A model generated the notes under the pieces. It was given only the letters and a program-made list of their open reading frames with translations. It was not told the DNA's origin and ran no database searches. 52,117 bases of DNA, from contig VHCW01000026.1 of NCBI GenBank assembly GCA_016871575.1, positions 1 through 52,117 on the forward strand, read 5' to 3'. The DNA is from Verrucomicrobiota bacterium (GTDB lineage Bacteria; Verrucomicrobiota; Verrucomicrobiia; Palsa-1439). This document shows, in pieces, positions 4,368 to 32,618 of this stretch; within the stretch, counting starts at the first letter, position 1; each line of letters starts with the position of its first letter. Made by a program: the position numbers and the translations under genes.

Positions 4368-5035
4368 TCAAGAAACTAGCAATCGCCGCCGTAATTGCCG
4401 CTGTAGCAGTGAGCGGATACTTCGTCTATCAAAACCGCGTCAACAAACAACAGCTCGCCAAGGCTGACGCGGGACAGTTGGTAACCAACAAAGTCGTGAG
4501 GACCTCCTCCTCCGCCCCGACCGGTCCTGTGCGCAAATTCAAGCTCACCAGCAAAGACAGCCCCGTCAAGTGGACCGGCTACAAGAAAGTCGGACGTCAT
4601 TCCGGCTGGTTCATCATGTTCGACGGCAGCGGCACGATGTGCGGTAACGACCTCACCACCGCCACCATTGACCTCAATATCGAGACCGAGTCAACCGAGA
4701 CCGATGACCCGACCGGCGTGCTTGCCGCGGTCATGAAGAAAGGCGACTTCTTCAACTGTGAAAAATTCCCCACCTCCAACTTCAAGAGCGTCAGCATCGC
4801 CAAAACCGACAAGCCCGACATCTACACCGTGACCGGCGATTTGCAGTTGCGTGATGTCACCAAGACGATTCAGTTCCCAGCGACCCTCACCGAAAGAGAC
4901 GGCGTCGTCAAACTCACCGCCGACTTCAAAGTGAATCGCAAGTGGTGGGGCATCGTTTGGAAAGGCGCTGGCGACAGCGTCCTTGAGGACGATGTCCGCC
5001 TTGAACTCAACGCCGAAGCCAAAGAGGCGAAGTAA
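4364..5035 (+). CDS. YceI family protein (lipocalin-like, periplasmic)
   Basis: A 223-residue protein with an N-terminal hydrophobic segment (IAAVIAAVAVSGYFVY, signal peptide or anchor), a linker of about 35 residues, and a YceI domain from about residue 60. Typical features are VKWTGYKKVGRHSGWF, the central KKGDFFNCEKFPTSNFKS, VTGDLQLRDVTKTIQFPATL and the final strand DVRLELNAEA. YceI proteins are eight-stranded barrels that bind polyprenyl or isoprenoid quinone-like chains in the periplasm; the ligand here is not known. The start has a Shine-Dalgarno (TAGGAG, 8 nt upstream) and overlaps the apbE stop. Coupling of a quinone-type carrier with a flavin transferase points to extracytoplasmic redox work, as inference. 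Confidence 0.88.
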   Translation: MIKKLAIAAVIAAVAVSGYFVYQNRVNKQQLAKADAGQLVTNKVVRTSSSAPTGPVRKFKLTSKDSPVKWTGYKKVGRHSGWFIMFDGSGTMCGNDLTTATIDLNIETESTETDDPTGVLAAVMKKGDFFNCEKFPTSNFKSVSIAKTDKPDIYTVTGDLQLRDVTKTIQFPATLTERDGVVKLTADFKVNRKWWGIVWKGAGDSVLEDDVRLELNAEAKEAK

Positions 5036-5048
5036 CTCAAACCCGAAC

Positions 5049-6275
5049 ATGAAGAGCACCGCCTATCTCATTACGGCGGTGCTCTTCGTTTCTACCCTGT
5101 TACGCGCCGCCGATCCGCTTTCACGGGAGGCGATAGAGCAGCGCATCCGCCAGCACCGGACCGCTGAGGCGACGTTCACCGTGCTCGCGCCCGACGGCAC
5201 GCCGCTGGCCGGACAGCCGGTGACGATTCGCCAGACGCGGCACAAGTTTCTGTTCGGCTGCAACGCCTTTTTGATCAACACAGCGGACGCTTCCGAACTT
5301 CAAAAAGCGTATCAGCGCCAGTTCGCTGCGATCTTCAATTACGCCACGCTCCCTTTCTATTGGGGCAGCTACGAGCGCGAGCAAGGCAAACCGAACGAGG
5401 AGAAGTTGCGAATGATGGCCGAGTGGTGCGTCCAGAACGATATCCGCGCGAAAGGCCATCCGCTTTGCTGGCACGAGGTCCAGCCCAAATGGCTGGAAGG
5501 ACGACAGACGAACGAGGTTCTCCGTCTCCAACTCGACCGCATTCAGCGCGACATCGCCGCCTTCAAGAGCACAGTTCCCATCTGGGACGTGTTGAACGAA
5601 GCGGTCGTGATGCCGAAACACAAAAACGCCATCGGCAATCTCTGTCAATCTCTCGGACAGCTTGAGTTGATTCGCCGGACCTTCGCCGAGGCGCGCCGGG
5701 CCGATCCGAAGGCGATGCTCATCCTCAACGATTTCATAATCAATGAGAAATTCCAGAACCTCATCCGCGAATGCCTCGACGCCGGCGTGCCGATTGACGC
5801 CATCGGCATCCAGTCGCACATGCACGACCGTTACTGGGGCGCAAAGAAGACATGGGACACCTGCGAGCAATACAAGCATTTCGGCAAGCCAATCCATTTC
5901 ACCGAGACCACCATCCTCTCCAAGCCCGACGCCGAGCAGGAACAAGCCCGGCAAGTCGAAGAGTTCTACCGCATTCTGTTCTCCCATCCGTCTGTTGAGG
6001 CCATCACGTGGTGGGACTTCAGCGACTTCAAAGCATGGAAGAACGCCGCCGCGGGGTTGGTCCGCAAGGACATGACCCCGAAACCCGCTTACGATATCCT
6101 TCTCCGCCTCATCAAGAAAGACTGGTGGACCGCCGAGATCAAGACCGCCACCGATGCCCAAGGCAAAGTCAGAGTGCGCGGCTTCCTCGGCGACTACCGC
6201 ATCGAGTGTTCCTACTGGCAGGGCACGTTTGCCCTCGACCGCAACAACAAAACCACCATCGTTCAAGTCCGCTGA
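5049..6275 (+). CDS. GH10 endo-1,4-beta-xylanase, secreted
   Basis: A 408-residue secreted glycoside hydrolase of family 10, cleaving the beta-1,4-xylan backbone with retention. After a signal peptide (residues 1-20) comes a short beta-rich module (ATFTVLAPDGTPLAGQPVTI), then the TIM barrel. Landmarks are KGHPLCWHEVQP (residues about 135-146), the acid/base Glu184 in IWDVLNEAV, and the nucleophile Glu286 in PIHFTETTIL. WWDFSDFKAW (321-330) closes the barrel and is followed by a small beta domain. All catalytic residues are present and length is normal. The start at 5049 is the only one that gives a signal peptide. It begins 13 nt after the YceI stop. A strong 13-bp hairpin starts at the G of its start codon. 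Confidence 0.92.
   Translation: MKSTAYLITAVLFVSTLLRAADPLSREAIEQRIRQHRTAEATFTVLAPDGTPLAGQPVTIRQTRHKFLFGCNAFLINTADASELQKAYQRQFAAIFNYATLPFYWGSYEREQGKPNEEKLRMMAEWCVQNDIRAKGHPLCWHEVQPKWLEGRQTNEVLRLQLDRIQRDIAAFKSTVPIWDVLNEAVVMPKHKNAIGNLCQSLGQLELIRRTFAEARRADPKAMLILNDFIINEKFQNLIRECLDAGVPIDAIGIQSHMHDRYWGAKKTWDTCEQYKHFGKPIHFTETTILSKPDAEQEQARQVEEFYRILFSHPSVEAITWWDFSDFKAWKNAAAGLVRKDMTPKPAYDILLRLIKKDWWTAEIKTATDAQGKVRVRGFLGDYRIECSYWQGTFALDRNNKTTIVQVR
5051..5087 (+). promoter_or_regulatory. 13-bp GC-rich RNA hairpin over the GH10 start codon
   Basis: GAAGAGCACCGCC (5051-5063) and GGCGGTGCTCTTC (5075-5087) are perfect inverted repeats with an 11-nt loop, followed by GTTTCT. The stem begins at the third base of the GH10 ATG and lies wholly within the signal-peptide codons. 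In RNA it could act as an intrinsic terminator for the upstream operon, although the U tract is poor, or limit translation of the xylanase. The structure is seen in sequence; its role is inferred. Confidence 0.6.
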
Positions 6276-6397: not shown

Positions 6398-8443
6398 ATG
6401 CGAACCATTTCCAGTCTGCTGATTCTGTTCCTGGTGACCGGCACCCTGTCGCTCCCGGTCATCGCACAGGAACCAGAACGGCTCGTGACATTCGACCCCG
6501 CCACGATAAAGACCACCGACGCAAAGATCTTAGTCGTGCGCAACGGCGCACTGCGAATCGAAACCGGCCACAAGAATCCGTGGCCGGGCATCGTGCTGGC
6601 AGCGCCACAGGGCAAGTGGGACTTGTCGCGCCGGCAGTTTGTCGAGATGGACGTGAAGAATGTCGGCACGGAAGCCGTGACCGTTTCCTGTCGCGTGGAC
6701 AATCCGGGCGCTGACGGCAAGAACAATTGCATCACCGATCACCTTAAACTTGACCCCGGTGCCGGCGGGACGCTTCGCGTGGCGTTCGCCAGTTTTCCGG
6801 TGGCAGTCGCCGGCGGCGTGAAAATCATCGGGATGCGCGGCACACCGGGCGGAAGCGAGAAGCTTGACCCGGCCAACGTCACGCAGTTGGTGGTGTTCGT
6901 CGCCAAGCCGAAACGCGACCATATGTTCGAGATTTCCAACGTCCGCGCCGGTGGAACGCTCGAACTGATTGATGCGAAGAAGTTCTTTCCGTTCATTGAC
7001 GAGTTCGGGCAATTCATCCACCGCGACTGGCCGGGCAAGGTGCATTCGCAGGAAGAGTTCACCGTGCGACGCGAAGCGGAGAAGAAAGACATCGCCAAGC
7101 ATCCCGGCCCCGCCGACCGGAACCAATACGGCGGCTGGACATCCGGGCCGCAACTGAAGGCGGCTGGTTTCTTCCGAGCCGAGAAACACCAGGGCAAATG
7201 GTGGCTGGTGGACCCGGAGGGGCGGTTGTTCTGGTCGCACGGGACGGATTGTGTGCGCGTCGAGGCCGCCACGCCGATCACCGACCGCGAACATTATTTC
7301 CGGAACCTACCGGAAACCGGGAGCCCGTTTTACGGCAAAGGGCACTGGGCACCGCACGGTTATTACAAGGACCACTCGCCGTACAAGACCTTCGATTTCA
7401 GCGGCGCAAATCTGCGCCGCAAGTACGGCGAGGGTTATCTCCAGGCGCTCGCGGAGGTCACGCAGCGCCGGTTGAGGAGTTGGGGAATGAACACCATCGC
7501 CAACTGGTCCGACAGCGGTATCTATCTCCTCCGCAAAACGCCGTACACCACCACGTTGTCCATGTTCTCGAAGCGGTTGGAAGGCTCGCAAGGTTATTGG
7601 GGCAAGTTCGCCGATGTCTTTGACACGTCATTTCGCGAATCAATCCGTCGTGCCATCGAGAAAGAAAGAGGCCGCTCGGTGAACGACCCGTGGTGCATCG
7701 GCTATTTCGTGGACAACGAACTCGGCTGGGGCAGCGACACCTCGCTGGCTGTCGCCGCGCTTGCTTCACCTCCGAGCCAATCGGCAAAACAGGTGTTCAT
7801 CGCTGACCTCAAAGCCAAGTACGACGACATCGCGAAGCTAAACGAAGCGTGGGGAACTCAGTTCGCTTCGTGGGAAGCGGTGACTGCGCCGAAAACCAAG
7901 AAGGCCGACGATGATCTCCGCGCGTTCTACACCAAGACCGCCGAGACGTATTTCTCGACCATCCGCGACGAACTGAAGAAGGTCGCGCCGAACCAACTTT
8001 ATCTCGGCTGCCGGTTCGCTTGGGTCAACGACCGCGCGGCGCTTGCCGCCGCGAAGTTTTGCGACGTGATCAGCTACAACCGCTACGACTACAGCGTCGA
8101 AAAACTAAGTCTCCCCAGCGACCTCGACCGTCCGCTGATCATCGGCGAGTTCCATTTCGGCGCGCTCGACCGCGGGATGTTCCACACCGGCCTGCGCAAG
8201 ACCGTCAACCAGCAGGACCGCGCACAAAAGTATCGCGAGTACGTCGAGAGCGCGCTGCGCAACCCATTCGTGGTCGGCACCCATTGGTTTCAATACCGCG
8301 ACCAAGCCACCACCGGCCGCGGCGACGGCGAGAACTACCAAATCGGCCTCGTGGACATCTGCGACACGCCGTACCCTGAAACCGTCGCCGCACTACGCGC
8401 CGTCGGCGCCAAGATGTACGAATACCGTCTCAATCCACACTGA
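6398..8443 (+). CDS. GH50-like beta-agarase, secreted
   Basis: A 681-residue protein with a signal peptide (residues 1-23), a beta-sandwich region to about residue 190 that resembles the carbohydrate-binding-like N-domain of family 50 agarases, and a TIM barrel. In the barrel, WWLVDPEGRLFWSHGTDCVR (268-287), RLRSWGMNTIANWSDSG, GYFVDNELGWG with candidate acid/base Glu441, and IIGEFHFGALDRGMFHTG with candidate nucleophile Glu584 are the GH50 hallmarks. GH50 enzymes hydrolyse agarose or neoagaro-oligosaccharides. Remote members may act on other beta-galactosides, so the substrate is less certain than the fold. It stands alone behind its own promoter and converges with the GH43 gene, with 18 nt between stops. 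The nearby sulfatases would suit a sulfated galactan. Confidence 0.8.
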   Translation: MRTISSLLILFLVTGTLSLPVIAQEPERLVTFDPATIKTTDAKILVVRNGALRIETGHKNPWPGIVLAAPQGKWDLSRRQFVEMDVKNVGTEAVTVSCRVDNPGADGKNNCITDHLKLDPGAGGTLRVAFASFPVAVAGGVKIIGMRGTPGGSEKLDPANVTQLVVFVAKPKRDHMFEISNVRAGGTLELIDAKKFFPFIDEFGQFIHRDWPGKVHSQEEFTVRREAEKKDIAKHPGPADRNQYGGWTSGPQLKAAGFFRAEKHQGKWWLVDPEGRLFWSHGTDCVRVEAATPITDREHYFRNLPETGSPFYGKGHWAPHGYYKDHSPYKTFDFSGANLRRKYGEGYLQALAEVTQRRLRSWGMNTIANWSDSGIYLLRKTPYTTTLSMFSKRLEGSQGYWGKFADVFDTSFRESIRRAIEKERGRSVNDPWCIGYFVDNELGWGSDTSLAVAALASPPSQSAKQVFIADLKAKYDDIAKLNEAWGTQFASWEAVTAPKTKKADDDLRAFYTKTAETYFSTIRDELKKVAPNQLYLGCRFAWVNDRAALAAAKFCDVISYNRYDYSVEKLSLPSDLDRPLIIGEFHFGALDRGMFHTGLRKTVNQQDRAQKYREYVESALRNPFVVGTHWFQYRDQATTGRGDGENYQIGLVDICDTPYPETVAALRAVGAKMYEYRLNPH

Positions 8444-8461: not shown

Positions 8462-10015
8462 TTATTGGGATGTCTCCCAAATCTTCCGGAGCAACTCGAA
8501 CACTTCCGGCTTGGACTGTTTCAATTCGCCACGGTTGAACGGGTAGAAGTCGTTCATGCCGAAATAGGATTCGGTCATCTCGGCGAAGAATTCTTTCTGG
8601 TTCGTCAACGCGTAGTGCTTCTTCTTGCCGCCGAAGATGTGGAGCACCGAGTCGAAATGGCCGCTCTCCTTGACGCGTTTCCACGCCGCCGTGATCCCGG
8701 CGTTCTCGAAGCCGAGCACTTGATCGTGGTAAGCGTGTGCCAGTTCATGGAGCACCGCCCACGGTTGCCGCACGTAATGGTCTTCCGGCGTCACAAACCG
8801 CGAGGCGTCGGGAACGTGAACGCAGCGAGCCATGTTGGTCGAGTAGCCATGGTCGCACAGCCAACCCGCGCTGGGATGGTACTGCATGGAAGTGAGTTTG
8901 CCGTGTGAACGGTCCAGCCAGATCGGCACTTGACGGAGCCGCAGCAGTTTGTCAGGCGGCATCACCAAGGCAATGTTGAACAACCGGTTTTCCAACAACT
9001 GCATTGCGCTCTTGCCAAGCGCCGCATCGGCGTCGCCAAGCAACCGGTCGTCCACATGGACAGTCCAGCCTTCGATGGTTCGTGTCGTGTGCGAAGATGG
9101 TTTCGGCGGCGTCATATTCGGAGCATGTTGTTCGACATCGCGGGTGGCTTTGCCGAAAAGGCGGCCTTGCTCGTCGAAGTGAAGCGGGTCGAGACAGATG
9201 AACCGGTTCCACTCGCGCTTTGCGGTGTTCTTTTGGTGATAGACGTGCCACCACTGCCCCACGCGGTCTTGAACGGCGCAGCCGTGGCCGGGACCGAACA
9301 GGCCCTCGGAACGTTGAATGATCGGATTGTGCGGCGCGCGCTGGAATGGGCCGAGCGGGCTTGACGCTGTGGCGTAGCCGACGGCGTAGTCGGGCGTGTC
9401 CGCGCCGGAACCGCTGTAGAGCAAATAATAAAGTCCGTTGCGCTTGATCAACCACGGTCCTTCGGTCACATGCCCGGCGCGTTTCTCCCAGTCGCTCTCC
9501 GGCCGAAGCACAACCTTGGGGTTGCCTTCCGGTTCCGTCGGCGAGCGCATCGGCTGAACCATGATGCGGAAACCGGGGAACTTCACGAAGTACAAATACA
9601 GCCGCCCGTTGTCGTCGCGGAACAAATGCGCATCAATCGCGTCGTCGAACAACTTCCGCGGATTCGTGAACGGCCCCAACGGCCTGTCCGCCACGGCGAC
9701 GCCAACGGTTTTGTTGGCAGTGTAGTAGAGATGGAACTGGCCCGACACCGGGTCGCGCCAGACATCCGGCGCCCAGATATGCCGGTCGCCCGGCTGGAAG
9801 ACGACCGGCCCGCGTTGCCAGTTGACCAAGTTGGTTGAGGTGTAAGCGCGGTAGCCGTTGTCGCCATTCACGTCGCCGGTCGCGTACAGATAGTAACGGC
9901 CTTCGTGAAAGATGACGCACGGGTCGGCGAGATTACCCTTGATGATCGGGTTGCGATACGTGTCCGCTGCGAATGCCGCGGTGACAATCAGGAACAAGGA
10001 AGCGAGACGAGTCAT
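8462..10015 (-). CDS. GH43 glycosidase fused to an HELAH zinc-peptidase-like domain
   Basis: A 517-residue secreted protein (signal peptide MTRLASLFLIVTAAFAA) with two modules. Residues 18-290 are a five-bladed beta-propeller of family GH43 (xylosidase/arabinofuranosidase type). The three expected acids are visible: Asp31 in NLADPCVIF, Asp128 in DAIDAHLFRDD and Glu185 in HVTEGPWLI. Residues about 315-517 form a second domain containing WAVLHELAHAYHD (HExxH, His423-Glu424...His427) and a downstream KEFFAEMTESYFG helix whose Glu479 could be the third zinc ligand. This is the arrangement of gluzincin-like peptidases, including lethal-factor-like ones. Start 10015 gives a signal peptide; upstream codons do not. 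The gene is divergent from the alpha/beta hydrolase. The HExxH domain could be active or a binding domain; its substrate is unknown. Confidence 0.85.
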   Translation of the reverse strand: MTRLASLFLIVTAAFAADTYRNPIIKGNLADPCVIFHEGRYYLYATGDVNGDNGYRAYTSTNLVNWQRGPVVFQPGDRHIWAPDVWRDPVSGQFHLYYTANKTVGVAVADRPLGPFTNPRKLFDDAIDAHLFRDDNGRLYLYFVKFPGFRIMVQPMRSPTEPEGNPKVVLRPESDWEKRAGHVTEGPWLIKRNGLYYLLYSGSGADTPDYAVGYATASSPLGPFQRAPHNPIIQRSEGLFGPGHGCAVQDRVGQWWHVYHQKNTAKREWNRFICLDPLHFDEQGRLFGKATRDVEQHAPNMTPPKPSSHTTRTIEGWTVHVDDRLLGDADAALGKSAMQLLENRLFNIALVMPPDKLLRLRQVPIWLDRSHGKLTSMQYHPSAGWLCDHGYSTNMARCVHVPDASRFVTPEDHYVRQPWAVLHELAHAYHDQVLGFENAGITAAWKRVKESGHFDSVLHIFGGKKKHYALTNQKEFFAEMTESYFGMNDFYPFNRGELKQSKPEVFELLRKIWETSQ

Positions 10016-10101: not shown

Positions 10102-12186
10102 ATGAAACACCGCGTCACAGGTTTGACCCGTCGCGACTTGCTCCGGAAAACAGGACTGGCTGTTCTCAGCGTTCCGCTCCTCGATTGGTTGCTTGTCAAC
10201 GAACTCCACGCCGCCGCCAAGGCGTCGCCACCGAAGCTCGAACCGCTCGCGCCGCTGAATCGGTTCCCGCGCATGGTGCACGAATACTTCGTCAATCGCG
10301 TCCGGCACATCGAACAGGAAGCCAACCAACGGCGCTCCGCGCTCCGAAGCCGATCCGATGCGCTGGCCTATGTCCGTTCGGTGCGCGAGAAAATCCAAAG
10401 CTCCTTCGGCCCGTGGACGGAGAAGACGCCGCTCAACCCGCGCATCACCGGTGTCGTGGAACGCGACGCCTACAACATCGAAAAAATCATCTTTGAAAGC
10501 CGGCCCGGTCTTCTGGTCACCGGCAACCTTTACGTTCCGAAAGGACGAAAGTTTCCCCTACCCGGTGTCATCGGGGTCTGCGGCCACTCGGCCAACGGCA
10601 AGGCGGCGGGTTATAACCAGAGTTTTTCGCAGGGCCTTGCGCGGATGGGCTACGTGACGTTGATCTTCGACCCAATCGGACAAGGTGAACGCTCGCAATA
10701 CGTGGATGCAAACCTGAAGTCGCGTATCGGTCTCGGCGTGGCCCAACATCTTCAAGCGGGAAACCAACAGTTTCTCGTTGGTGAATTTTTCGGAGCGTGG
10801 CGCGCTTGGGACGGCATCCGCGCGTTGGACTATCTTTCCACGCGGCCGGAAGTTGACCCAAAACAAGTCGGCGTTACCGGCTGTTCCGGCGGCGGCACAA
10901 TGACCACTTGGCTGGCGGGCGTTGAGCCACGATTCTCAATGGCCGCGCCATCGTGTTTCGTCACGACATTTCGCCGCAATCTGGAAAACGAACTGCCTGC
11001 TGACACCGAGCAATGCCCGCCACGGGCGCTCGCGCTCGGCCTCGACCATTCGGATTTTCTCGCCGCGCTGGCGCCGAAACCGGTGCTCATCCTCGCGCAG
11101 GAAAAAGATTACTTCGACGCGCGCGGAGCGGAAGAGGCGCTCGACCGGTTGCGCCGGCTCTACAGATTGCTCGGAGCGGAACGCAATGTCGAGTTGTTCA
11201 CCGGCCCGCTCTACCACGGTTATACACCGGAAAGCCGTGAAGCGATGTATCGCTGGTTCAATCACGTCACGAAGATTTCCGACGCCCAGACCGAGCCGCC
11301 GCTGACCATCGAGAAGGACGAGACGCTGTGGTGCACGCCGCACGGACAAGTCGCCGAATTGAAATCGCGCACGGTCTTTTCGTTCACGCAAGACAAGGCT
11401 CGCGCCTTGAGCCGGCGACGCAACTCGTCTCTTACAAAAGCATTAGCGAACACGCTGAAGCTTCCCCCGCGTTCCGGCGCTCCCGAGTACCGCATCCTGC
11501 GCCCGCTGAGCGGTCGCCGGTATCCGAAGAGATACACTGTCGTTTATGCGGTTGAGACCGAGCCGGGGATCCAGGCGGTTGTGTACCGGTTGTCGGACGA
11601 ACCGATCATGTCGCGCCCGCCGCGCGGGATTGACCGCGCGGTGCTGTACGTGTCGCACCAGTCCGCCGACGCCGAGTTGCGGGACGAACTGTTGATCGGC
11701 GAACTGCTGAAGTCGGAACCGGCCTCGGCGCTGTACGCCTGCGACGTGCGCGGCATCGGCGAGTCACAACCCGACACCGGCAGCCTGCGAAGTTTTCTGA
11801 ACGCCTATGGCAACGATTACTTCTACGCCATCCATTCCATCATGCTTGACTATCCTTACATCGGCCAGAAGACGCACGACGTGTTGCGGGTGATTGACTG
11901 GCTGGTCAGTTGCGGCCACAAGGAGATTCACCTGGCCGCCAAAGGCTGGGGCGCAATACCCGCGACATTCGCCGCGGTGCTGGCCAAGCCGGTTATGCAG
12001 GTCACACTGAAAAACGCTCTCGTCTCCTACTCTGCCATCGCCGAGTCGGAGGACTATCAATGGCCGCTCTCCACGCTGCTACCCGACGTCCTCAAACATT
12101 TCGACCTGCCCGACTGCTACCAGGCGTTGGCCGCCAAGAAACTCCGGCAGATCGAGCCGTGGGGCGCGATCCCCACACCGGTATAA
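10102..12186 (+). CDS. Tat-exported tandem alpha/beta hydrolase (acetyl xylan esterase / dienelactone hydrolase-like)
   Basis: A 694-residue protein starting with a twin-arginine signal (GLTRRDLLRKTGLAVLSVPLL). The first hydrolase domain (about 120-400) has the oxyanion region VIGVCGHSANGKAAGYNQSF, the DPIGQGERSQ loop, and the nucleophile elbow GVTGCSGGGTMTTW with Ser262. A histidine is available in LYHGYTPESREAMY. The second half (about 480-694) looks like another alpha/beta hydrolase domain (CDVRGIGESQPDTG, HLAAKGWGAIPATFAA) with the nucleophile serine apparently replaced, so it is probably non-catalytic. Homologues are annotated as acetyl xylan esterases or prolyl-oligopeptidase-like hydrolases. 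A TATAAAT sits 5 nt upstream of the ATG and no Shine-Dalgarno is seen. It converges with the sulfatase at 12196. Confidence 0.82.
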   Translation: MKHRVTGLTRRDLLRKTGLAVLSVPLLDWLLVNELHAAAKASPPKLEPLAPLNRFPRMVHEYFVNRVRHIEQEANQRRSALRSRSDALAYVRSVREKIQSSFGPWTEKTPLNPRITGVVERDAYNIEKIIFESRPGLLVTGNLYVPKGRKFPLPGVIGVCGHSANGKAAGYNQSFSQGLARMGYVTLIFDPIGQGERSQYVDANLKSRIGLGVAQHLQAGNQQFLVGEFFGAWRAWDGIRALDYLSTRPEVDPKQVGVTGCSGGGTMTTWLAGVEPRFSMAAPSCFVTTFRRNLENELPADTEQCPPRALALGLDHSDFLAALAPKPVLILAQEKDYFDARGAEEALDRLRRLYRLLGAERNVELFTGPLYHGYTPESREAMYRWFNHVTKISDAQTEPPLTIEKDETLWCTPHGQVAELKSRTVFSFTQDKARALSRRRNSSLTKALANTLKLPPRSGAPEYRILRPLSGRRYPKRYTVVYAVETEPGIQAVVYRLSDEPIMSRPPRGIDRAVLYVSHQSADAELRDELLIGELLKSEPASALYACDVRGIGESQPDTGSLRSFLNAYGNDYFYAIHSIMLDYPYIGQKTHDVLRVIDWLVSCGHKEIHLAAKGWGAIPATFAAVLAKPVMQVTLKNALVSYSAIAESEDYQWPLSTLLPDVLKHFDLPDCYQALAAKKLRQIEPWGAIPTPV

Positions 12187-12195
12187 CGCGCAGAG

Positions 12196-13638
12196 TTATT
12201 TCTCGTTCCTGCGTTTCTTGCCTTTGCGAGGCGCGTCGCGTTGGGGTGACACATACTTCTCATCATCGCTGACAGCCCAAGCAAGATCGGCGCGAATAGA
12301 GGGATGATCGGCGTGCGGTTCCTTGCAGCGCCGCGCGTACTCCAACAACGCGCGCGCCAAGTTGCGCACGATTGGACGCGAGCCAGGCGCAGAGAAGATG
12401 TTGCGCAACTCAAAAGGGTCTTGGTCAAGGTCAAACAAGCTCGGCTCCGCGTCTGTCGCAACGACCAACTTGTAGCGGCTCGACACGGCCATGAGCCAAC
12501 GGCCGTTGGCGTGGCGGGAAACAGTGATGTTCTTCCAATCCGGCGGCGTTTTGCCGGTGAGGAAGATCGTTGCAGCGTCGCGGCCTTCGTCGCGTTCGTC
12601 GCGCGGCAGGCCGAGCAATCCGAGCAACGTCGGCTTGAAATCCGTGGTGTTGAGCGCCTCGTGAACGACGCTGCCGGGCTTGATTTTGCCGGGATAACTG
12701 ATGAGGAACGGGATGCGGGCGGACGCTTCAAAAGGAACGCCTTTGTTGAGAAGCCCGTGTTCGCCGCACATATCGCCGTGATCGGAAGTGAAAACAACAA
12801 CCGTCTTTTCCATGAGGCCAGCGGCGCGAAGAGCGTCAAGGATTTTGCCGATGTTGTCGTCAAGGCACTTCACCATGCCAAAATACCAACTCATGTTTTC
12901 CATCCGTCCTTGCCCTTTTGCTGAGAGCGGCAATTGGAATTTGAAAGAATCGAACATGGTGTCGTAGGGCGAACGAACCCGATTGGGGCCATGCGGATCA
13001 GGAAAGCTGACCATGTAACAGAACGGCTTGTCCTTGTGTGCTTGGATGAAGCTGGCGGCTTTGTCAGCCAGAAAATCCGTGGTGTATGTTTTTTTGTCGC
13101 CCAGACCGCGCTCATTCACCGACGGACCGGAAGACGTTTCCAACACTTCCTTCCAATGACCGCGATTGAACATATAGCGGTTGTCTTGAAAGCCAAACTG
13201 GCGCGACGGCGTCCAGCCCGGTTTGGCGTCGCCGTCCAGATGCCACTTGCCGGCGTAGCCGGTCGCATAGCCGTGCCGGCGCAACGCCTCGGCGAATGTG
13301 ACAACATCGTCGTTCATCGGCTTGTCATTGACCGGCGCGCCGGTGTTTTGCGGATACCGCCCGGACACGAACGAGGCCCGCGACGGCGTGCAGACCGGCG
13401 AGGCGGCATAAAATCGGTCGCAGAGAGCGCCTCGCTTGGCAATCGAATCAATGTGCGGCGTCTCGACCGCAATGCCGTCGCCCCACGCGAACGACGCCTC
13501 CTTCGGCAACAGCGCCCGGTAACAGCCGAGCGTGCGAAAGTTCTGCTCGTCGGTGTGCAGGATAAGCACATTGGTTTTTTCCGCGGCGAACGTCTGGCCG
13601 CAGAGAAGAGCGAGTACCACGACAAACAGTGTCTTCAT
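12196..13638 (-). CDS. Secreted sulfatase, formylglycine-dependent (CTPSR)
   Basis: A 480-residue type I sulfatase that would release sulfate from a sulfated sugar or small ester. The signal peptide is MKTLFVVVLALLCGQTFAA. Metal-site residues include Asp30 in LILHTDEQN, where the usual second Asp is replaced, and Asp286-His287 in FTSDHGDMCGEHG. Cys83 in SPVCTPSRASFVSGRYPQNTG is the residue converted to formylglycine, and Lys131/His133 lie in YAGKWHLDGD. The C-terminal small domain has LFDLDQDPFELRNIF. A basic tail (RKGKKRRNEK) ends the protein. Substrate is not predictable; the family is closest to iduronate-2-sulfatase/choline-sulfatase-like enzymes. Its 30-nt 5' flank resembles that of the SGNH hydrolase upstream. 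Confidence 0.92.
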   Translation of the reverse strand: MKTLFVVVLALLCGQTFAAEKTNVLILHTDEQNFRTLGCYRALLPKEASFAWGDGIAVETPHIDSIAKRGALCDRFYAASPVCTPSRASFVSGRYPQNTGAPVNDKPMNDDVVTFAEALRRHGYATGYAGKWHLDGDAKPGWTPSRQFGFQDNRYMFNRGHWKEVLETSSGPSVNERGLGDKKTYTTDFLADKAASFIQAHKDKPFCYMVSFPDPHGPNRVRSPYDTMFDSFKFQLPLSAKGQGRMENMSWYFGMVKCLDDNIGKILDALRAAGLMEKTVVVFTSDHGDMCGEHGLLNKGVPFEASARIPFLISYPGKIKPGSVVHEALNTTDFKPTLLGLLGLPRDERDEGRDAATIFLTGKTPPDWKNITVSRHANGRWLMAVSSRYKLVVATDAEPSLFDLDQDPFELRNIFSAPGSRPIVRNLARALLEYARRCKEPHADHPSIRADLAWAVSDDEKYVSPQRDAPRKGKKRRNEK

Positions 13639-13730
13639 GGCGGTGTTGTATCAGAATCCAGCATCGAGGCGACAAGAAATATTCCGCTTTCGCTGAAGCT
13701 ACTGTACCGTCAATCCTATTGTAAGGGTGG

Positions 13731-13837
13731 TTGTAGTAAGCCACGCAGCGAAGCGAAGTGGCGCTGCACAACGTCGCTGTGTCCCAACGGCCCGCGCTCC
13801 GGCCCGAAACGGCATGGGACTGCGTGCGTAACTACAA
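13731..13837. repeat. Imperfect inverted repeat, TTGTAGT-ended family, copy 1
   Basis: TTGTAGTAAGCCACGCAGC (13731-13749) pairs with the reverse complement of ACTGCGTGCGTAACTACAA (13819-13837), 16 of 19 positions matching. Inner hairpins are GCCAC/GTGGC (13740-13744, 13758-13762) and TCCCA/TGGGA (13782-13786, 13815-13819). It lies in the 401-bp gap 13639-14039 between two - strand genes; no coding sequence is seen in that gap. A relative lies at 14992-15074. Confidence 0.7.
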
Positions 13838-13913
13838 ACGCACCCGAACATTCAAGATTGACGGAGTACTTGTGCCACAGGGGCAGGAAGTAACTGCGTT
13901 TCACATCTTTCGC

Positions 13914-13955
13914 CCGTCGGGTGTTGTGTAATAGCTGTTACACAACACCCGACGG
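13914..13955. terminator. 18-bp perfect stem with 6-nt loop
   Basis: Arms 13914-13931 and 13938-13955 (core TCGGGTGTTGTGTAA / TTACACAACACCCGA) are perfectly complementary around a 6-nt loop. It sits about 85 nt downstream of the SGNH hydrolase stop on the - strand, where a terminator is expected, but no clear T tract follows on either strand. Terminator is the best guess; a regulator site is possible. Confidence 0.45.
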
Positions 13956-14002
13956 CGGGAGACAGCGTTTTTTACAGCGTGACAAATTGTTCCGATTTCG
14001 TT

Positions 14003-14026
14003 CCGCCTTCGCGAAAGCCACGGCGG
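14003..14026. repeat. CCGCC...GGCGG short palindromic repeat, copy 1
   Basis: A 24-nt unit with CCGCC and GGCGG ends around an inner CTTCGCGAAAG hairpin. A second 24-nt unit with the same ends and related centre is at 22979-23002. Both stand in non-coding DNA. Confidence 0.6.
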
Positions 14027-14039
14027 ACAGTTCCGTCAA

Positions 14040-14849
14040 TCAGCGAAGCGCAACGAGGATTTCGCTGGCAACCTTCTTGCCGAGGAAATCGTAGCCGGCG
14101 CTGTTGAAATGACAGTCGTCCTTATTCTGGTATTCAGAGAGGTGCGGCTGAATGTGCGCGTGAAGATCGTCAATGGCGATGTTGTGTTTCTTCATCACGC
14201 GCGCGGCGATGGCATTGCGCTCAACGATGGCGTCGTCGCTGCCGTACTTGCCTTGTGGCGGCAACGGCGTGCTGCTGGCCCACATCAGTTTCGCACCGGT
14301 TTTCTGGAGGCGAGCGATGATCTGTTCGAGACGCTGCTCATAGTCGGTAGGCTTGGTGGCGCGGTCATGAATGCCGAAGTTGAAGTGGATGAGATTCCAT
14401 TTCCCGTCGCCAAGCCAGATGTCGAGCTTCTTCAAGCCGTTCGCAGTCGGGCCGCAATTCTCCGGCGCGCGATGAACGTTGACCTTTCCGTCGAGCGCCT
14501 TGCGGACGGGAAGCGTGTAGCCGCGCGAGATGGAATCGCCGATGAGCAGCACGCGCGGCAGTTTCGGGTCGTCCACCACAAAGTCCCAAGCGTTCGATTT
14601 GCCGGCAACCTTGTCTTTCTTGTGCAGCGGCAGATAAAAGCCACCGAGGCACTGCTGGAGGACGCGCTCCCACGCCTGTTGTTCCGGCGGCAGCTTGGCG
14701 ACCCACGCGGCGTATTGCTCGTCGAGAAGTTTGTCGGCAGCGGCTTTCTTCTCGGCGGACTCTTTCGCGTTGGTCGGCTCGGTCGCGGCGAAGACTTGGC
14801 CGCAAAAAAGCGCAAGAAGCGCAACAAGAAGGATGGATAGTGATTTCAT
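14040..14849 (-). CDS. Secreted SGNH/GDSL hydrolase
   Basis: A 269-residue extracytoplasmic esterase of the SGNH superfamily, probably removing acetyl or other acyl groups from carbohydrate. It has a signal peptide (MKSLSILLVALLALFCGQVFAA), then a helical N-terminal region of about 75 residues with LPPEQQAWERVLQQ. The catalytic domain follows: block I RVLLIGDSISRGY with Ser106, the Gly block near NVHRAPENCGPTANG, the Asn block HFNFGIHD, and block V DDCHFNSAGYDF with Asp244 and His247. All four SGNH blocks are present. Start 14849 gives the signal peptide. The gene sits alone between two repeat-bearing gaps and beside sulfatases, consistent with de-esterification of the same polymer. Confidence 0.88.
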   Translation of the reverse strand: MKSLSILLVALLALFCGQVFAATEPTNAKESAEKKAAADKLLDEQYAAWVAKLPPEQQAWERVLQQCLGGFYLPLHKKDKVAGKSNAWDFVVDDPKLPRVLLIGDSISRGYTLPVRKALDGKVNVHRAPENCGPTANGLKKLDIWLGDGKWNLIHFNFGIHDRATKPTDYEQRLEQIIARLQKTGAKLMWASSTPLPPQGKYGSDDAIVERNAIAARVMKKHNIAIDDLHAHIQPHLSEYQNKDDCHFNSAGYDFLGKKVASEILVALR

Positions 14850-14991
14850 GGGGATGTTGTACCAGAATCCTGCTTGCCCGGCCACGACCACGTTTTCAAG
14901 TTGTATCAAACCTCGCCCCACCGCCGCGACACCAAATGTTCCGGTGTTGTTCCGGATCGTTTGTTGTCGCCACATCATGCTGAAGTGGTAG

Positions 14992-15074
14992 GTTTGTAGT
15001 CAGGCACGAAGCTCTGAGCGGAGTGCCGTGGGGTCGCAAAACGCCACTCCGCAGGCTCCGTGGCTTACGACGAA
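14992..15074. repeat. Imperfect inverted repeat, TTGTAGT-ended family, copy 2
   Basis: The left half starting GTTTGTAGTCAGGCACGAAG and the reverse complement of the right half (starting GTTCGTCGTAAGCCACGGAG) match at most positions, including the inner GCGGAGTG. Ends resemble those of the repeat at 13731-13837, so the two flank the SGNH gene. The rest of the 318-bp gap 14850-15167 shows no coding potential or other clear signal. Confidence 0.65.
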
Positions 15075-15167
15075 CATCCGGTTAGCGGGCGTTGGCGCAA
15101 GCGCAAGATTCACAGTGCAGGCGGTTGATTGGCTCTTGGAGTCGGCGGGAGATTCCGTTCGCTAATC

Positions 15168-16598
15168 TCACTTCGGTAGTGGCTCGCCTTGCAACATCTT
15201 CAGCGTTGTTTCGTGCTGGGGCGAGGTGACGGCGCCGCGCAACAGCGGGTCGTCGGTCTCAACCATGTGCTTGTAAAGACGGCGGGCCAGTTCGTTGCGG
15301 ATGGCGGCGCACTCCGGCTTTTTCGCGAGATCAACCTGTTCCCACGGGTCTTTTACAAGATCGTAAAGTTCCAGATGTGGATGAAACGCGGTGGCCGGGT
15401 TTTCGGGCACTTTGGGATCGGACTTTGGCCGCCATTGTTGCGAGGAGTCCTGAAACGCCGGCGCGGTGGAGAAGTTGGCGATGAGTTTGTGCGTCTCGGT
15501 GCGGATGCTGCGTTGCGGGTCGTAGTAACCGTGGTAGGTCAACTCACCGAAGATCGCGCTGTTGGGCTTGTAAGCGCGTCCGTCGAGCAACGGCGCAAAC
15601 GAACGTCCTTGCACGTTGGCGGGCACGGAAACGCCGGCGAGTTCGAGGATGGTCGGCAGCATGTCAATGTTCGAGACCATCTCGTTACGGACAACGCCGC
15701 CGTGCCAGCCTTTGCGGCCAGCGTGACGAAGCAACAAGGCGATTTGCAGTCCCGGCTCGTACAGGCTGCACTTGGCGCGCGGCATCGCGATGCCATGGTC
15801 GGTCGTGGCGATGACGAGCGTGTTGTTCTCCAAGCCAAGTTCGCGAATGGCTTGCGTCCAACGCCCAAACTGCTCGTCCACGTGCTTCACAAGCCCCTGC
15901 AAACCGGCCAGTTCTTCGCGCGTGCCCGGCGTGTCGCGCAGATAGCCGGGCACGTCCACGCCGAGCGAATCATCCAATTGCACATAGGGACCAGGAAAAC
16001 CGACCAACCCGGACATCGGTCCCGAACCTTCCGGGTAACGAAGCCGGTGCGGCTCGATAAAACCGGCGTAGAGATAGAACGGTCGCTTGGCAGCAGCCAG
16101 TTGTTTGAGTTCTTCGAGAGCCGCCGTGGTGCCCTCGACGGCCTTGGCTTTGGGAATGTGTTTGTCGTAACCCCAGCGTTTCGCCGGGGAGTGTGTTTCG
16201 TGGGTGACACCGACGGCAACCGTGGCATAACCGGCTTCCTTGAGAAACTGGGCGAGATGTTTTTCATCAGGGCGAAGTTCCCAAGCGAAATTGGCGTGGG
16301 TCAACCCCATGACGCCGTTGCTGTGCGGATAGCGTCCGGTGAAGAGCGACGCGCGCGACGGGCTGCATCCGGGCTGCGTGCAGAAGGAGCGGGCAAACCG
16401 GACGCCCTGTTCCGCAAACTTGTCGAAATGCGGCGTCTGGACTGTCTTCACGCCGTAGCAATGCAGGAATTGTCCCAGGTCGTGGCAATGAAACATCACG
16501 ATGTTGGGCCGTTGCGCTTCAGGTTTGGCCTCGGTTCTGACCGGCAAGACACCGGTTCCAATGATCAGGCTGGCAAGGAAGGATATGGCTTTGTTCAT
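15168..16598 (-). CDS. Secreted sulfatase, N-sulfoglucosamine-sulfohydrolase-like (CSPSR)
   Basis: A 476-residue sulfatase. The signal peptide is within residues 1-24. The opening NIVMFHCHDLGQFLHCYGV and the active-site stretch TQPGCSPSRASLFTGRYPHS (Cys78 is the predicted formylglycine) resemble heparan N-sulfatase/SGSH-type enzymes more than arylsulfatases. Further landmarks are TTDHGIAMPRAKCSLYEPG (metal Asp/His) and the small-domain HLELYDLVKDPWEQVDLAKK. The ATG at 16598 was chosen over two upstream ATGs because it begins the signal peptide and lies just after a promoter. The substrate could be a 6-O- or N-sulfated sugar; sequence alone does not decide. Confidence 0.9.
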   Translation of the reverse strand: MNKAISFLASLIIGTGVLPVRTEAKPEAQRPNIVMFHCHDLGQFLHCYGVKTVQTPHFDKFAEQGVRFARSFCTQPGCSPSRASLFTGRYPHSNGVMGLTHANFAWELRPDEKHLAQFLKEAGYATVAVGVTHETHSPAKRWGYDKHIPKAKAVEGTTAALEELKQLAAAKRPFYLYAGFIEPHRLRYPEGSGPMSGLVGFPGPYVQLDDSLGVDVPGYLRDTPGTREELAGLQGLVKHVDEQFGRWTQAIRELGLENNTLVIATTDHGIAMPRAKCSLYEPGLQIALLLRHAGRKGWHGGVVRNEMVSNIDMLPTILELAGVSVPANVQGRSFAPLLDGRAYKPNSAIFGELTYHGYYDPQRSIRTETHKLIANFSTAPAFQDSSQQWRPKSDPKVPENPATAFHPHLELYDLVKDPWEQVDLAKKPECAAIRNELARRLYKHMVETDDPLLRGAVTSPQHETTLKMLQGEPLPK

Positions 16599-16604
16599 GC
16601 AGCA

Positions 16605-16634
16605 TTTATGGCGCAGAGACCGATCCATTTTCAA
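16605..16634 (-). promoter_or_regulatory. Promoter of the 15168-16598 sulfatase
   Basis: Read on the - strand: TTGAAA (16634-16629), an 18-nt spacer, CATAAA (16610-16605), then 6 nt to the ATG. No Shine-Dalgarno is present, so a leaderless mRNA is predicted. Confidence 0.5.
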
Positions 16635-16646
16635 GGCTCAATAAAC

Positions 16647-17888
16647 TTACATCGGGGATTGTCCTTGGAGCGGGCCGAGGCGACGGAGTTGCGGCCACGT
16701 CAGCGCCACCAATCCCACAACCACGATGGTGCCAACGCCGCCAAACACCACGGAAAACACCGCGCCACCAAGCGCGGCAAGCAGACCGGACTCGAACGCG
16801 CCGAGTTCATTCGATGTGGTGATGAACACGCTGTTGACAGCCGAGACGCGACCGCGCATCGGGTCGGGTGTGAGCACTTGCACGAGGGTGTGGCGGACCA
16901 CGACGCTGATTTGGTCGAACGACCCGAGCAGGTAGAGCATCCACAGCGATAACCAGAACCGATCGCTCAACCCGAACAGTATGGTCACCGCGCCAAAACC
17001 CGCCACACCCCACAACAACGTCACGCCCGCGCGCTGGGGCGGACGATGCGCGATGAACAACGCCATCACCAGCGCGCCGATCCCCGGCATGGCGCGCAGC
17101 CAACCGTACCCGGCCGGGCCGACGTGCAGGATGTCCTTCGCATAAATCGGCAGCAACGCCGTCGCGCCGCCGAACAGCACGGCAAACATGTCGAGCGTGA
17201 TCGCCGCGAGAATAAGTTTGGTGCTCCAGACAAACCGCACCCCGGCCAACGCCGACCGCAACGTGAGCGGCTCCGGCGACGCGGCGACAACCTGGCGTTT
17301 ACGAATGAACACAAGGCAAATGGCAAACGTGATCATCAGGCCTGCGTTGATGAAATACACCGGCGTCGCGGCCCGGTGCCACGCGATCAACCACCCGGCA
17401 AGCACGGGGCCGAGCACGGAAGCGAGTTGGAATCCGCTGCTGCGCCACGTGACGGCATTGGCGAACACATTGAGCGGGACCAGTTGTGGCAGCAGCGCGG
17501 CTTGCGCGGGGAAATTGAAGGAACGCGCGCAACCGCCAATGAACAAACAAAGATAAAATGCGTTGATCGGTCCGTGGCTGGAGGAAAGAAACGCAATGCC
17601 CAACGAAGTGAGCGCCATGACCAGTTGCATCACGATGGCGATCCGCCGCCGTTCAAACCGATCCGCCGCGTGCCCGGCGGGAAGCGCCAGCAAGAACACC
17701 GGCAACGCCTGCACCAGCCCGACCAACGCCAGCGGCATCGCCGAGCCGGTGCGCTCGTACAACTCCCATCCCACGGCGGCTTCCTGCATGGCGTGGCTGG
17801 TGTTGGCCAGCAACGCCCCCACGGCGAACAGGCAATAGTCCCGGTGCCGAAATGCCGCGTACGGATCGTGTCGGGAACCGTCGCTCAT
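16647..17888 (-). CDS. MFS transporter (MFS_3/EntS-like, 12 TM)
   Basis: A 413-residue inner-membrane major facilitator with about twelve hydrophobic helices. It opens with [20 protein letters not shown], typical of the MFS_3 branch that includes enterobactin exporter EntS. The loop 2-3 motif is [14 protein letters not shown], followed by the [20 protein letters not shown] helix. The family is generally of exporters or transporters of unknown small molecules; a sugar or sulfate-ester role is only suggested by context. Its ATG overlaps the stop of the sulfatase (ATGA, 17885-17888), so the pair is translationally coupled. No repeat or other gene lies between it and the next stop. Confidence 0.85.
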
Positions 17889-19501
17889 CCCGCCTTTTTC
17901 TTCTGCGCTCTCGGAGGAGGAAGCACTTCGTCAGTAAACGGCGAACGATCGAAGGTCTTGCCGTCGCCCGTCACGCGCGGGTCGCCGGCGTCAGTGAGAA
18001 TTTTCATCAACCGACTTGAAAGCTCACGCTTGGCGCGCGCATAGGCGGGATCGGCGGCAACGTTGGTGGCCTGATCGGGATCTTTGCGCAGATCGTAGAG
18101 TTCCTCGGCGGGACGTTTGCCGAAAGCGTATTCGTAATGCCATTTCCACTGCGGCACGTTGTATTGGCCAACGAGCCAGGCCTTGGTCGGACTGGCGTCC
18201 ATGTCGGCAAACGCAACGAACGTGTTGTGTTCCAGCGCCTCGGCGGACGGAAGATCAGCAGCGCCGATGAACTTCGGGTCGCCCATCGGCCAGCGGTCAG
18301 GCGCAAAATTGCGGACGTAAAGGAAGTCGCGCGTCCGAAATGCCCGGTGCGGGTACGGCAGGTTGCCGTCGCGCGCGGTCGCGACATGCCGCTCGCGTCC
18401 GGCCACCACCCACGTGCGCGTCGAGTCCACCAAGCCGGATTTGCTGGAGCGAAGCACGTTGAGGATGCTGCGTCCCGTCATGCAAGCGGGCGGCTTCAGG
18501 CCGCCGGCTTCGAGGAAGGTCGGCGCGAGGTCCATCAGGTTGACGAAGTCGTCCACGACGCGACCGGGTTTGACGCCGGGACCGCGGGCAATGAGCGCCA
18601 CGCCGACGCCGTGATCGTAGAGCGTGCACTTGCCGCCGGGGACGCCGGGAAAACCGTGGTCGCCGCTGAGGACGAGGAGCGTGTTGTCGAGTTCGCCGAT
18701 GGCGCGGAGTTTTTCGACGATGACGCCGATACCCTCGTCCAACGCCTGGATTTCGCCCATGTAATCGGCGTAATCGCCGCGCACTTCGGGGACATCGGGC
18801 ATGAACTTGGGCAGTTTGCCTTTCAGCGAATCCGGCTCGATACCCCAAAGCGCCTTGCCTGAGTTTTTCTCAAAGGTGCGATGGGTGTGCGTCGGCCCGA
18901 ACCAATAACAAAACGGCTGGCCGGGTTTGCGGTCGGCGAGGAACGCCTCGAAATTACCGCGCACTTCATCGAGCAGTTTCGCCTTGGCAGCATCAAAGGT
19001 CAGGCCGCTCTGGACAAGCTTGGTGGCATTCTGGGAAAACTGGTTGTACGCGCGCCCGGCTTTTTCATACGCGTGTTGCTGCCCACCGTACGGGGCGTCC
19101 ACCGGTGTGCCGGGACTCCAGACTTTGTAGCTCTTGCCGATGTGATAACCGGCGTCGCGCAACAACAACGGGTAACTGGGAATGTTCAAGTCCCATTCCG
19201 CGCCTTGGAGGATGGCGCCGCGATTGGTGCGGAAGAAATACTGCCCCGACAACAATGAACTCCGGCACGGCGTGCAGCTTGGCGATGTCACGAACGCGTT
19301 CTTGAAGAGGACACCTTCGCGCGCGACGCGGTCAATGTTCGGCGTCTTCAGAACATCGTTGATGGACGGACGCCCGTCCACGCCGGCGTAACAGTTGGCA
19401 TAACGCCCCCAATCATCTGCAAAACAAAAGACGATATTGACTTTGTCGGCGGCGTGCGATGCCGCAGCAAGAACAAGAGACAACGCGAGAAGTGTTTTCA
19501 T
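17885..19501 (-). CDS. Secreted sulfatase with CTPCR active-site motif
   Basis: A 538-residue sulfatase with signal peptide [17 protein letters not shown] and the canonical double Asp of the metal site in [16 protein letters not shown] (Asp29, Asp30). The formylglycine motif is [18 protein letters not shown]: Cys76 is the modified residue and the fourth position is Cys79 instead of the common serine. This still fits C-x-P-x-[21 protein letters not shown] carries the other metal ligands. The C-terminal part has [17 protein letters not shown] and ends in a basic tail. The coupled MFS gene downstream suggests a joint role in handling a sulfated compound. Confidence 0.9.
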
Positions 19502-32535: not shown

Positions 32536-32578
32536 GTGAACCTCCATTACACCTCCATTCGACACCGACAAATTTGTT

Positions 32579-32606
32579 TTGTTCCCGGCAAAGCTTCTGG
32601 TACTAA
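32579..32606 (+). promoter_or_regulatory. Promoter of the GHMP kinase gene
   Basis: TTGTTC (32579-32584), a 16-nt spacer and TACTAA (32601-32606) end 12 nt before the ATG. No Shine-Dalgarno is seen. Confidence 0.45.
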
Positions 32607-32618
32607 TCGCTACATCGC

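What the first reader, a model, noticed from the sequence alone, without database searches (positions are those of the whole stretch)
8462..10015. GH43 beta-propeller fused to an HELAH zincin-like domain
Seen: an intact GH43 catalytic triad (Asp31, Asp128, Glu185) and, 240 residues later, LHELAHAYHD with a downstream KEFFAEMTESYFG helix, in one frame with one signal peptide. Established: GH43 enzymes are usually followed by carbohydrate-binding or beta-sandwich domains, not peptidases. Inference: a bifunctional enzyme for glycoproteins or proteoglycans, cleaving sugar and peptide.
Basis: partly seen in the sequence, partly recalled or inferred. Interest (0 to 1): 0.75.

Follow-up and report, generated by a model that had tools for sequence, protein, structure and literature searches.

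The report
Sugar-cutting enzyme fused to metallopeptidase
A secreted bacterial enzyme joins a sugar-removing domain to an apparently intact zinc peptidase domain from a large uncharacterised family that has been attached many times to glycan-degrading enzymes, which suggests, but does not prove, joint attack on glycoproteins.

Summary
One 517-residue frame holds an intact GH43 domain (Pfam 9.9e-58; D31, D128, E185) and, after a short flexible linker, a complete zincin domain (HELAH 423-427, Y468, E475). The C-terminal model is very confident (pLDDT 96) and superposes best on Pro-Pro endopeptidases and the lethal-factor peptidase domain (Z about 12), but it stays below the Pfam ATLF and M90 cut-offs and lacks the PPEP Glu-Glu pair (0 of 143 relatives). 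It is therefore treated as an undescribed family of that fold, not as a PPEP or ATLF member. The family is common in Verrucomicrobiota and Planctomycetota, normally as a small secreted protein, and all 143 domains compared keep HExxH, Tyr and Glu. It is often fused: to SASA esterases, GH95, GH29, sulfatases, alkaline phosphatase, cytochrome/DUF6797 and others (22 of 80 database-named loci), with fused/stand-alone changing about 27 times on its tree. The GH43 fusion was seen only in this genome (1 of 384 genomes of the class). Most likely a real bifunctional secreted enzyme; the glycoprotein substrate is inferred. No activity is shown.

The parts
8462..10015 (-). whole gene: signal peptide + GH43 + M34/PPEP-like zincin domain, 517 aa (P0001)
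   Evidence: open frame without internal stop; Pfam; models
9965..10015 (-). putative signal peptide, residues 1-17
   Evidence: hydrophobic N-terminus MTRLASLFLIVTAAFA read from the sequence; no predictor available
9164..9958 (-). GH43 catalytic domain, residues 20-284
   Evidence: PF04616 9.9e-58, cut-off 32.2 bits, score 196.2; model matches 4qqs Z 36.5, rmsd 2.0, 278 aligned
9923..9925 (-). GH43 D31 (role of general base recalled)
   Evidence: position checked; in a matching column of 3kst and 4qqs
9632..9634 (-). GH43 D128 (role of pKa-modulating Asp recalled)
   Evidence: position checked; in a matching column of 3kst and 4qqs
9461..9463 (-). GH43 E185 (role of general acid recalled)
   Evidence: position checked; in a matching column of 3kst and 4qqs
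9089..9118 (-). interdomain linker, residues 300-309 (NMTPPKPSSH)
   Evidence: residues 302-306 have pLDDT below 50; stand-alone GH43 relatives end just before it
8465..9103 (-). zincin domain, residues 305-517 (P0002)
   Evidence: model pLDDT 96.2, pTM 0.93; PPEP-2, PPEP-3 and lethal-factor folds at Z about 12
8735..8749 (-). HELAH, residues 423-427: two zinc His and base Glu424
   Evidence: 143 of 143 relatives
8612..8614 (-). Tyr468, expected oxyanion Tyr
   Evidence: 143 of 143; 7 residues before the Glu as in lethal factor and PPEP-1 chains
8591..8593 (-). Glu475, expected third zinc ligand, in KEFFAE
   Evidence: 143 of 143
8861..8878 (-). family signature H380-P-x-x-x-W385 (role unknown)
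   Evidence: H in 139 and W in 139 of 143
4983..6275 (+). context: GH10 xylanase-type gene
   Evidence: PF00331 7.2e-43
6398..8443 (+). context: GH42-like secreted glycosidase
   Evidence: PF02449 1.9e-9
10102..12186 (+). context: AXE1/glucuronoyl-esterase-like gene
   Evidence: PF05448 9.7e-9
12196..13638 (-). context: sulfatase (others at 15168-16634 and 17885-19501)
   Evidence: PF00884 2e-50, 8.5e-36 and 1.1e-30

Best explanation
A secreted two-enzyme protein. A signal peptide exports it; the GH43 beta-propeller removes pentose units (arabinose or xylose) from glycan chains; a flexible linker of about ten residues carries a zinc metallo-endopeptidase domain of the fold shared by Pro-Pro endopeptidases and the lethal-factor peptidase domain, in which H423, H427 and E475 hold zinc, E424 is the base and Y468 steadies the transition state. 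Shown here by sequence and model: the architecture, the intact catalytic residues of both halves, the peptidase-type fold, and the recurrent fusion of the same domain family to other glycan-acting enzymes. Inferred: that both halves are active (peptidase about 0.75) and that they act together on glycoproteins or proteoglycans of plant or algal walls, the glycosidase clearing sugars while the peptidase cuts the backbone (about 0.35 for this joint-substrate step). The fusion is lineage-specific: a stand-alone secreted peptidase gene was joined behind a stand-alone GH43 gene.
For: GH43 at 9.9e-58 with the triad in matching columns of solved GH43s. Domain model pLDDT 96.2. Structural neighbours led by PPEP-2 (6fpc, Z 12.1, rmsd 3.5, 158 aligned), PPEP-3 (9g0j, Z 12.1), lethal factor (1j7n, Z 11.9), PPEP-1 (5a0p, Z 10.8), then Certhrax 9.3 and a Klebsiella putative metal-dependent hydrolase (3dl1) 8.8, above other zincins at 7.6 or less. 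HExxH, Tyr and Glu in 143 of 143, with the Tyr-to-Glu spacing of 7 seen in lethal factor and PPEP-1. The tree needs 27 fused/stand-alone changes, at least 8 forced by starred branches, and the window copy sits among stand-alone ones. GH43 relatives at 66-70% identity end where the linker begins. A neighbour cluster whose representative is a sulfatase lies within 6 kb of 24 of 116 loci, without a background control. The window context is a polysaccharide locus: GH10, GH42-like, AXE1-like, three sulfatases.
Against: No activity data. Foldseek alone gave no PDB match at E <= 0.001; the fold link rests on the second-look aligner. Pfam ATLF and M90 scores are below cut-off. A PPEP-like protein with intact HExxH and an extra N-terminal domain, C. 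difficile CD1597, showed no proteolysis in published assays (PMC11460543, passages), so an intact motif does not prove activity. Some partners (DUF6797/cytochrome c, alkaline phosphatase, S9 peptidase, NTF2-like) are not glycan hydrolases. The GH43 fusion was seen in one genome only. The immediate neighbours look like a xylan or sulfated-polysaccharide locus, not a glycoprotein one.
Confidence: 0.5

Rival explanations
1. Two independent enzymes merely co-secreted: neighbouring genes of a polysaccharide locus fused, and the halves have unrelated substrates (pentosans and any protein).
For: Flexible linker with undefined domain orientation (pTM 0.58, linker pLDDT below 50). Partners are diverse, with 33 label changes on the tree. 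The GH43 and the domain each have close stand-alone relatives.
Against: Partners are not random: carbohydrate esterases, GH95, GH29, GH43 and sulfatases recur. But sulfatases and esterases are abundant in these phyla and no background was computed.
Confidence: 0.25
2. A processing peptidase: the domain matures itself, its partner or other secreted proteins, for instance by cutting its own Pro-rich linker and releasing both enzymes.
For: The linker holds TPPKP, which fits the PPEP preference for Pro at P1, P1' and P3' (PMC12828418, passages). PPxP occurs in 11 of 143 pre-domain stretches against 2.3 +/- 1.4 in 500 shuffles.
Against: 132 of 143 lack PPxP, and plain PP is not enriched (35 against 28.9 +/- 4.5); related rows inflate the count. 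The PPEP Glu-Glu pair is absent.
Confidence: 0.12
3. The zincin domain binds metal but is not a peptidase in practice (pseudo-enzyme or other chemistry).
For: CD1597 precedent; distance from all characterised peptidases.
Against: 143 of 143 keep HExxH, Tyr and Glu; a pseudo-enzyme family would be expected to lose some.
Confidence: 0.1
4. Assembly artefact or missed stop: two genes joined by an error.
For: Single draft genome in 257 contigs; no second genome has this fusion.
Against: No signal peptide remains at the junction although 82 of 84 stand-alone relatives have a hydrophobic stretch there; same GC3 on both sides; other fusions of the domain occur in single-contig genomes (G472, G427).
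Confidence: 0.03

Closest known systems
Pro-Pro endopeptidases PPEP-1, PPEP-2, PPEP-3 (MEROPS M34, recalled)
   Same: Small secreted zincins; HExxH, Tyr, then Glu 7 residues on; fold Z 10.8-12.1
   Different: No Glu before the zinc Glu (0 of 143; PPEP-1 Glu184-185, PPEP-3 Glu196-197); 16-22% identity; fused to glycan enzymes; specificity unknown
ATLF domain PF07737 (lethal-factor peptidase domain)
   Same: Same active-site layout and fold (Z 11.9); weak Pfam match in 34 of 35
   Different: Below the Pfam cut-off (23.2 against 27.4 bits); no targeting or binding domains of the toxin; environmental PVC bacteria, degradative enzymes as partners
MtfA / Peptidase_M90 (PF06167)
   Same: Zincin, weak match in 35 of 35
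   Different: Below cut-off (18.6 against 26.2 bits); secreted, not cytosolic (MtfA location recalled)
GH43 of 3kst, 4qqs, 3qz4 type
   Same: 31-37% identity over 269-278 structurally aligned residues, triad, fold Z 32.2-36.5
   Different: Carries a peptidase domain instead of the usual beta-sandwich or CBM partner (usual partners recalled)

Membership tests
GH43 | Pfam curated cut-off | tested here: met
   PF04616, 196.2 bits against 32.2
GH43 | Asp, Asp, Glu catalytic triad | tested here: met
   D31, D128, E185 in matching columns of 3kst and 4qqs
GH43 | five-bladed beta-propeller fold | tested here: met
   model matches 4qqs Z 36.5, rmsd 2.0, 278 aligned
ATLF / M34 | HExxH plus Tyr and Glu 7 apart | tested here: met
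   143 of 143; spacing in lethal factor and PPEP-1 chains
ATLF / M34 | Pfam PF07737 curated cut-off | tested here: not met
   P0002 23.2 bits against 27.4; 2 of 35 members at E <= 3.4e-6
ATLF / M34 | fold of the lethal-factor or PPEP peptidase domain | tested here: met
   Z 12.1 (6fpc, 9g0j), 11.9 (1j7n) against 7.6 or less for other zincins; Foldseek itself not significant
PPEP | Glu-Glu tandem including the zinc Glu | tested here: not met
   position before E475 is K, M, Q, R, A or L in 143 of 143; tandem described in PMC12828418
PPEP | cleavage between two prolines | not testable with these tools
   needs a peptide library
Peptidase_M90 (MtfA) | Pfam PF06167 curated cut-off | tested here: not met
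   18.6 bits against 26.2

The most novel reading that the evidence does not exclude
An undescribed PVC-wide family of secreted zincins serves as a mobile catalytic accessory module of glycan-degrading enzymes: fused or neighbouring carbohydrate esterases, fucosidases, sulfatases and, here, a GH43 clear the glycans, and the module cuts the glycoprotein backbone (possibly at Pro- or Hyp-rich sites), giving these bacteria a one-protein way into algal and plant wall glycoproteins.
Probability: 0.3. Interest if true: 0.78.

Novelty: new variant of a known kind. Interest (0 to 1): 0.6.

Why it matters
If the domain is an active peptidase, a fold whose nearest solved structures are Pro-Pro endopeptidases and the lethal-factor group has a large environmental branch tied to glycan breakdown, present in 35 of 199 Planctomycetota genomes at E <= 1e-30 and 27 of 141 close relatives of the window genome at E <= 1e-3. 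It would give a new kind of module to look for in carbohydrate-degrading loci, a handle on how Verrucomicrobiota and Planctomycetota use glycoproteins, and a ready test: does glycan removal gate peptide cleavage in one chain?

Tried and rejected
Self-cleavage at a Pro-Pro linker: PPxP is present in only 11 of 143 and plain PP is not enriched; kept as a minor rival.

Filing the domain as PPEP or ATLF: rejected on the Pfam cut-off and the missing Glu-Glu pair.

A second GH43 fusion: none in 141 relatives or 384 class genomes, and no strong GH43 in any of the 80 named loci. G428 (L210) has the same GH43 fused to a different C-terminal region of about 400 aa.

Frames that looked fused but are probably just open upstream sequence: L114, L115, L117, L124, L126, L159, L168, L171, L198. 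L128 and L129 (domain + AXE1-like) have a second signal-like stretch inside and were not counted; L133 has an unassigned C-terminal 134 aa and was not counted.

Neighbour analysis of stand-alone copies: sulfatase-cluster frames directly beside 8 of 89 loci, same strand within 200 bases, with at least two pairs the same locus reached twice (L067/L113, L080/L158); no background control, so only suggestive. DUF1501, PSCyt and PQQ clusters are probably just common in these phyla (inference).

Literature: no report of such fusions in search listings (open-licence PubMed Central only). Passages read of PMC12828418 and PMC11460543 only. The HExxH/Y/E residue numbers of lethal factor are recalled; spacing was seen.

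Full report
WHAT IS THERE. Window 8462-10015, minus strand, encodes one 517-aa protein. Residues 20-284 are GH43 (PF04616, 9.9e-58), with D31, D128 and E185 in matching columns of the solved GH43s 3kst and 4qqs. Residues 305-517 form a separate domain with HELAH (423-427), Y468 and E475. Pfam sees it only weakly: ATLF 2.3e-4 and M90 0.0066 for the whole protein, both below cut-off. NCBIfam gives nothing relevant for it.

FOLD. An alignment of 35 relatives (A1) gave a model with pLDDT 96.2 and pTM 0.93. Foldseek found no PDB match at E <= 0.001. The second-look aligner on Foldseek's 418 candidates put PPEP-2 (6fpc, Z 12.1, rmsd 3.5, 158 aligned, 22% identity), PPEP-3 (9g0j, Z 12.1) and lethal factor (1j7n, Z 11.9) first, then PPEP-1 (5a0p, 10.8), Certhrax (4gf1, 9.3) and a Klebsiella putative hydrolase (3dl1, 8.8), with LTA4 hydrolase and other zincins at 7.6 or less. 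The full-length model (14-row alignment, pLDDT 82.7, pTM 0.58) shows two domains with a disordered linker at 302-306; its GH43 half matches 4qqs at Z 36.5.

THE FAMILY. Relatives of the domain at E <= 1e-3: 19 of 288 genomes of the phylum and 27 of 141 nearest relatives by single sequence; 140 of 384 class genomes by profile, many of them only C-terminal-half, distant matches; 35 of 199 Planctomycetota genomes at E <= 1e-30. After dropping 4 identical domains from 147 (profile score 100 or more, 180 or more positions), 143 of 143 keep HExxH, Tyr and Glu. Bias: the GTDB scan used a pattern containing the E475 region, so that Glu is partly selected in the 80; HExxH and Tyr were not in the pattern, and the loci from the genome search were found without patterns. 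H380 and W385, part of a YHPxxxW signature, are kept in 139 of 143 each.

STAND-ALONE AND FUSED. 82 of 84 stand-alone copies have a hydrophobic, signal-like stretch directly before the domain. Of the 80 named loci I classed 22 as fused (count in 80). Pfam was run on 13 frames; the rest were assigned by BLAST clustering with those. Partners: SASA esterase (PF03629) in L116, L119, L120, L127, L131, L134, L136, L137, L139, L141, L150, L153, L154, L165 and L172; GH95 in L131 (with SASA), L132, L152, L164 and L167; sulfatase in L155; alkaline phosphatase in L143; alpha/beta hydrolase in L118; L116 and L127 also carry cytochrome c and DUF6797. Among 32 further loci, 24 of them taken for their long frames and so not an unbiased sample: SASA (L178, L181, L183, L187, L199, L201), a glycosidase-like region that I read as apiosidase-like without a Pfam test (L194), an S9-like peptidase (L188), NTF2-like regions (L184, L195), and eleven tandems with a distant copy of the domain (partner names there are my reading, not Pfam).

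EVOLUTION. On a tree of 143 domains the fused/stand-alone label changes 27 times (shuffled mean 41), at least 8 forced by starred branches; all partner labels together change 33 times (quick method, 27 of 140 inner branches starred). The set is enriched for fusions by the choice of loci just told, so the number of changes is not a rate. The window copy lies among stand-alone copies (nearest L078, L076, L099), so its GH43 fusion is best read as independent of the others. GH43 relatives at 66-70% identity (L063, L064) end where the linker begins. The one other genome of the genus and the nine others of the family searched lack a close copy of the domain. Only the window genome has GH43 and the domain in one frame.

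CONTEXT. Neighbours are GH10, GH42-like, AXE1/glucuronoyl-esterase-like, three sulfatases, a GDSL esterase and an MFS transporter: a polysaccharide locus, with xylan-type signs.

HOW IT MOST LIKELY WORKS. The GH43 removes arabinose or xylose units; the zincin cuts peptide bonds by the usual Glu/zinc mechanism with Tyr468 stabilising the transition state, as described for PPEP-3 (Tyr190, Glu197; PMC12828418, passages). The joint substrate is inferred from the repeated pairing with glycan-acting enzymes. Against it: non-glycan partners, no activity data, and the CD1597 precedent of an intact HExxH protein with an extra N-terminal domain in which no proteolysis was found (PMC11460543, passages).

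KNOWN OR NEW. It works like an M34-fold peptidase but fails the ATLF and M90 cut-offs, and the PPEP Glu-Glu pair is absent in 143 of 143; I therefore file it as a new variant of a known fold, not as a member. Seven literature searches listed no such fusion (open-licence PubMed Central only).

Noticed in passing
L210 (G428:C193), + strand frame of 745 aa from 1384: The same GH43 type (69% identical) fused to a different C-terminal region of about 400 aa, so this GH43 lineage joins other domains too.
   Followed up: no
L180, L182, L185, L186, L189-L193, L196, L200: Tandem proteins holding the domain plus a distant copy with its own HExxH-region match, some with an N-terminal beta-like region ahead of it.
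   Followed up: partly
L127:5885-10651 and L116:8640-13511: Giant proteins combining cytochrome c, DUF6797, SASA esterase and the zincin domain in one frame, in different orders.
   Followed up: partly
L128:9476-11950, L129:9465-11651: Domain followed in the same frame by an AXE1-like esterase with its own signal-like stretch: two genes without a stop between them, or an unusual read-through.
   Followed up: no
L071-L074: Four close relatives have a beta-lactamase-family (PF00144, tested in L073) frame directly downstream, overlapping or within 12 bases.
   Followed up: no
window 12196-19501: Three sulfatase genes, a GDSL esterase and an MFS gene on the minus strand beside the finding.
   Followed up: partly
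window 29491-32700: 1069-aa VIT-domain/DUF2135 protein, likely surface or secreted.
   Followed up: no
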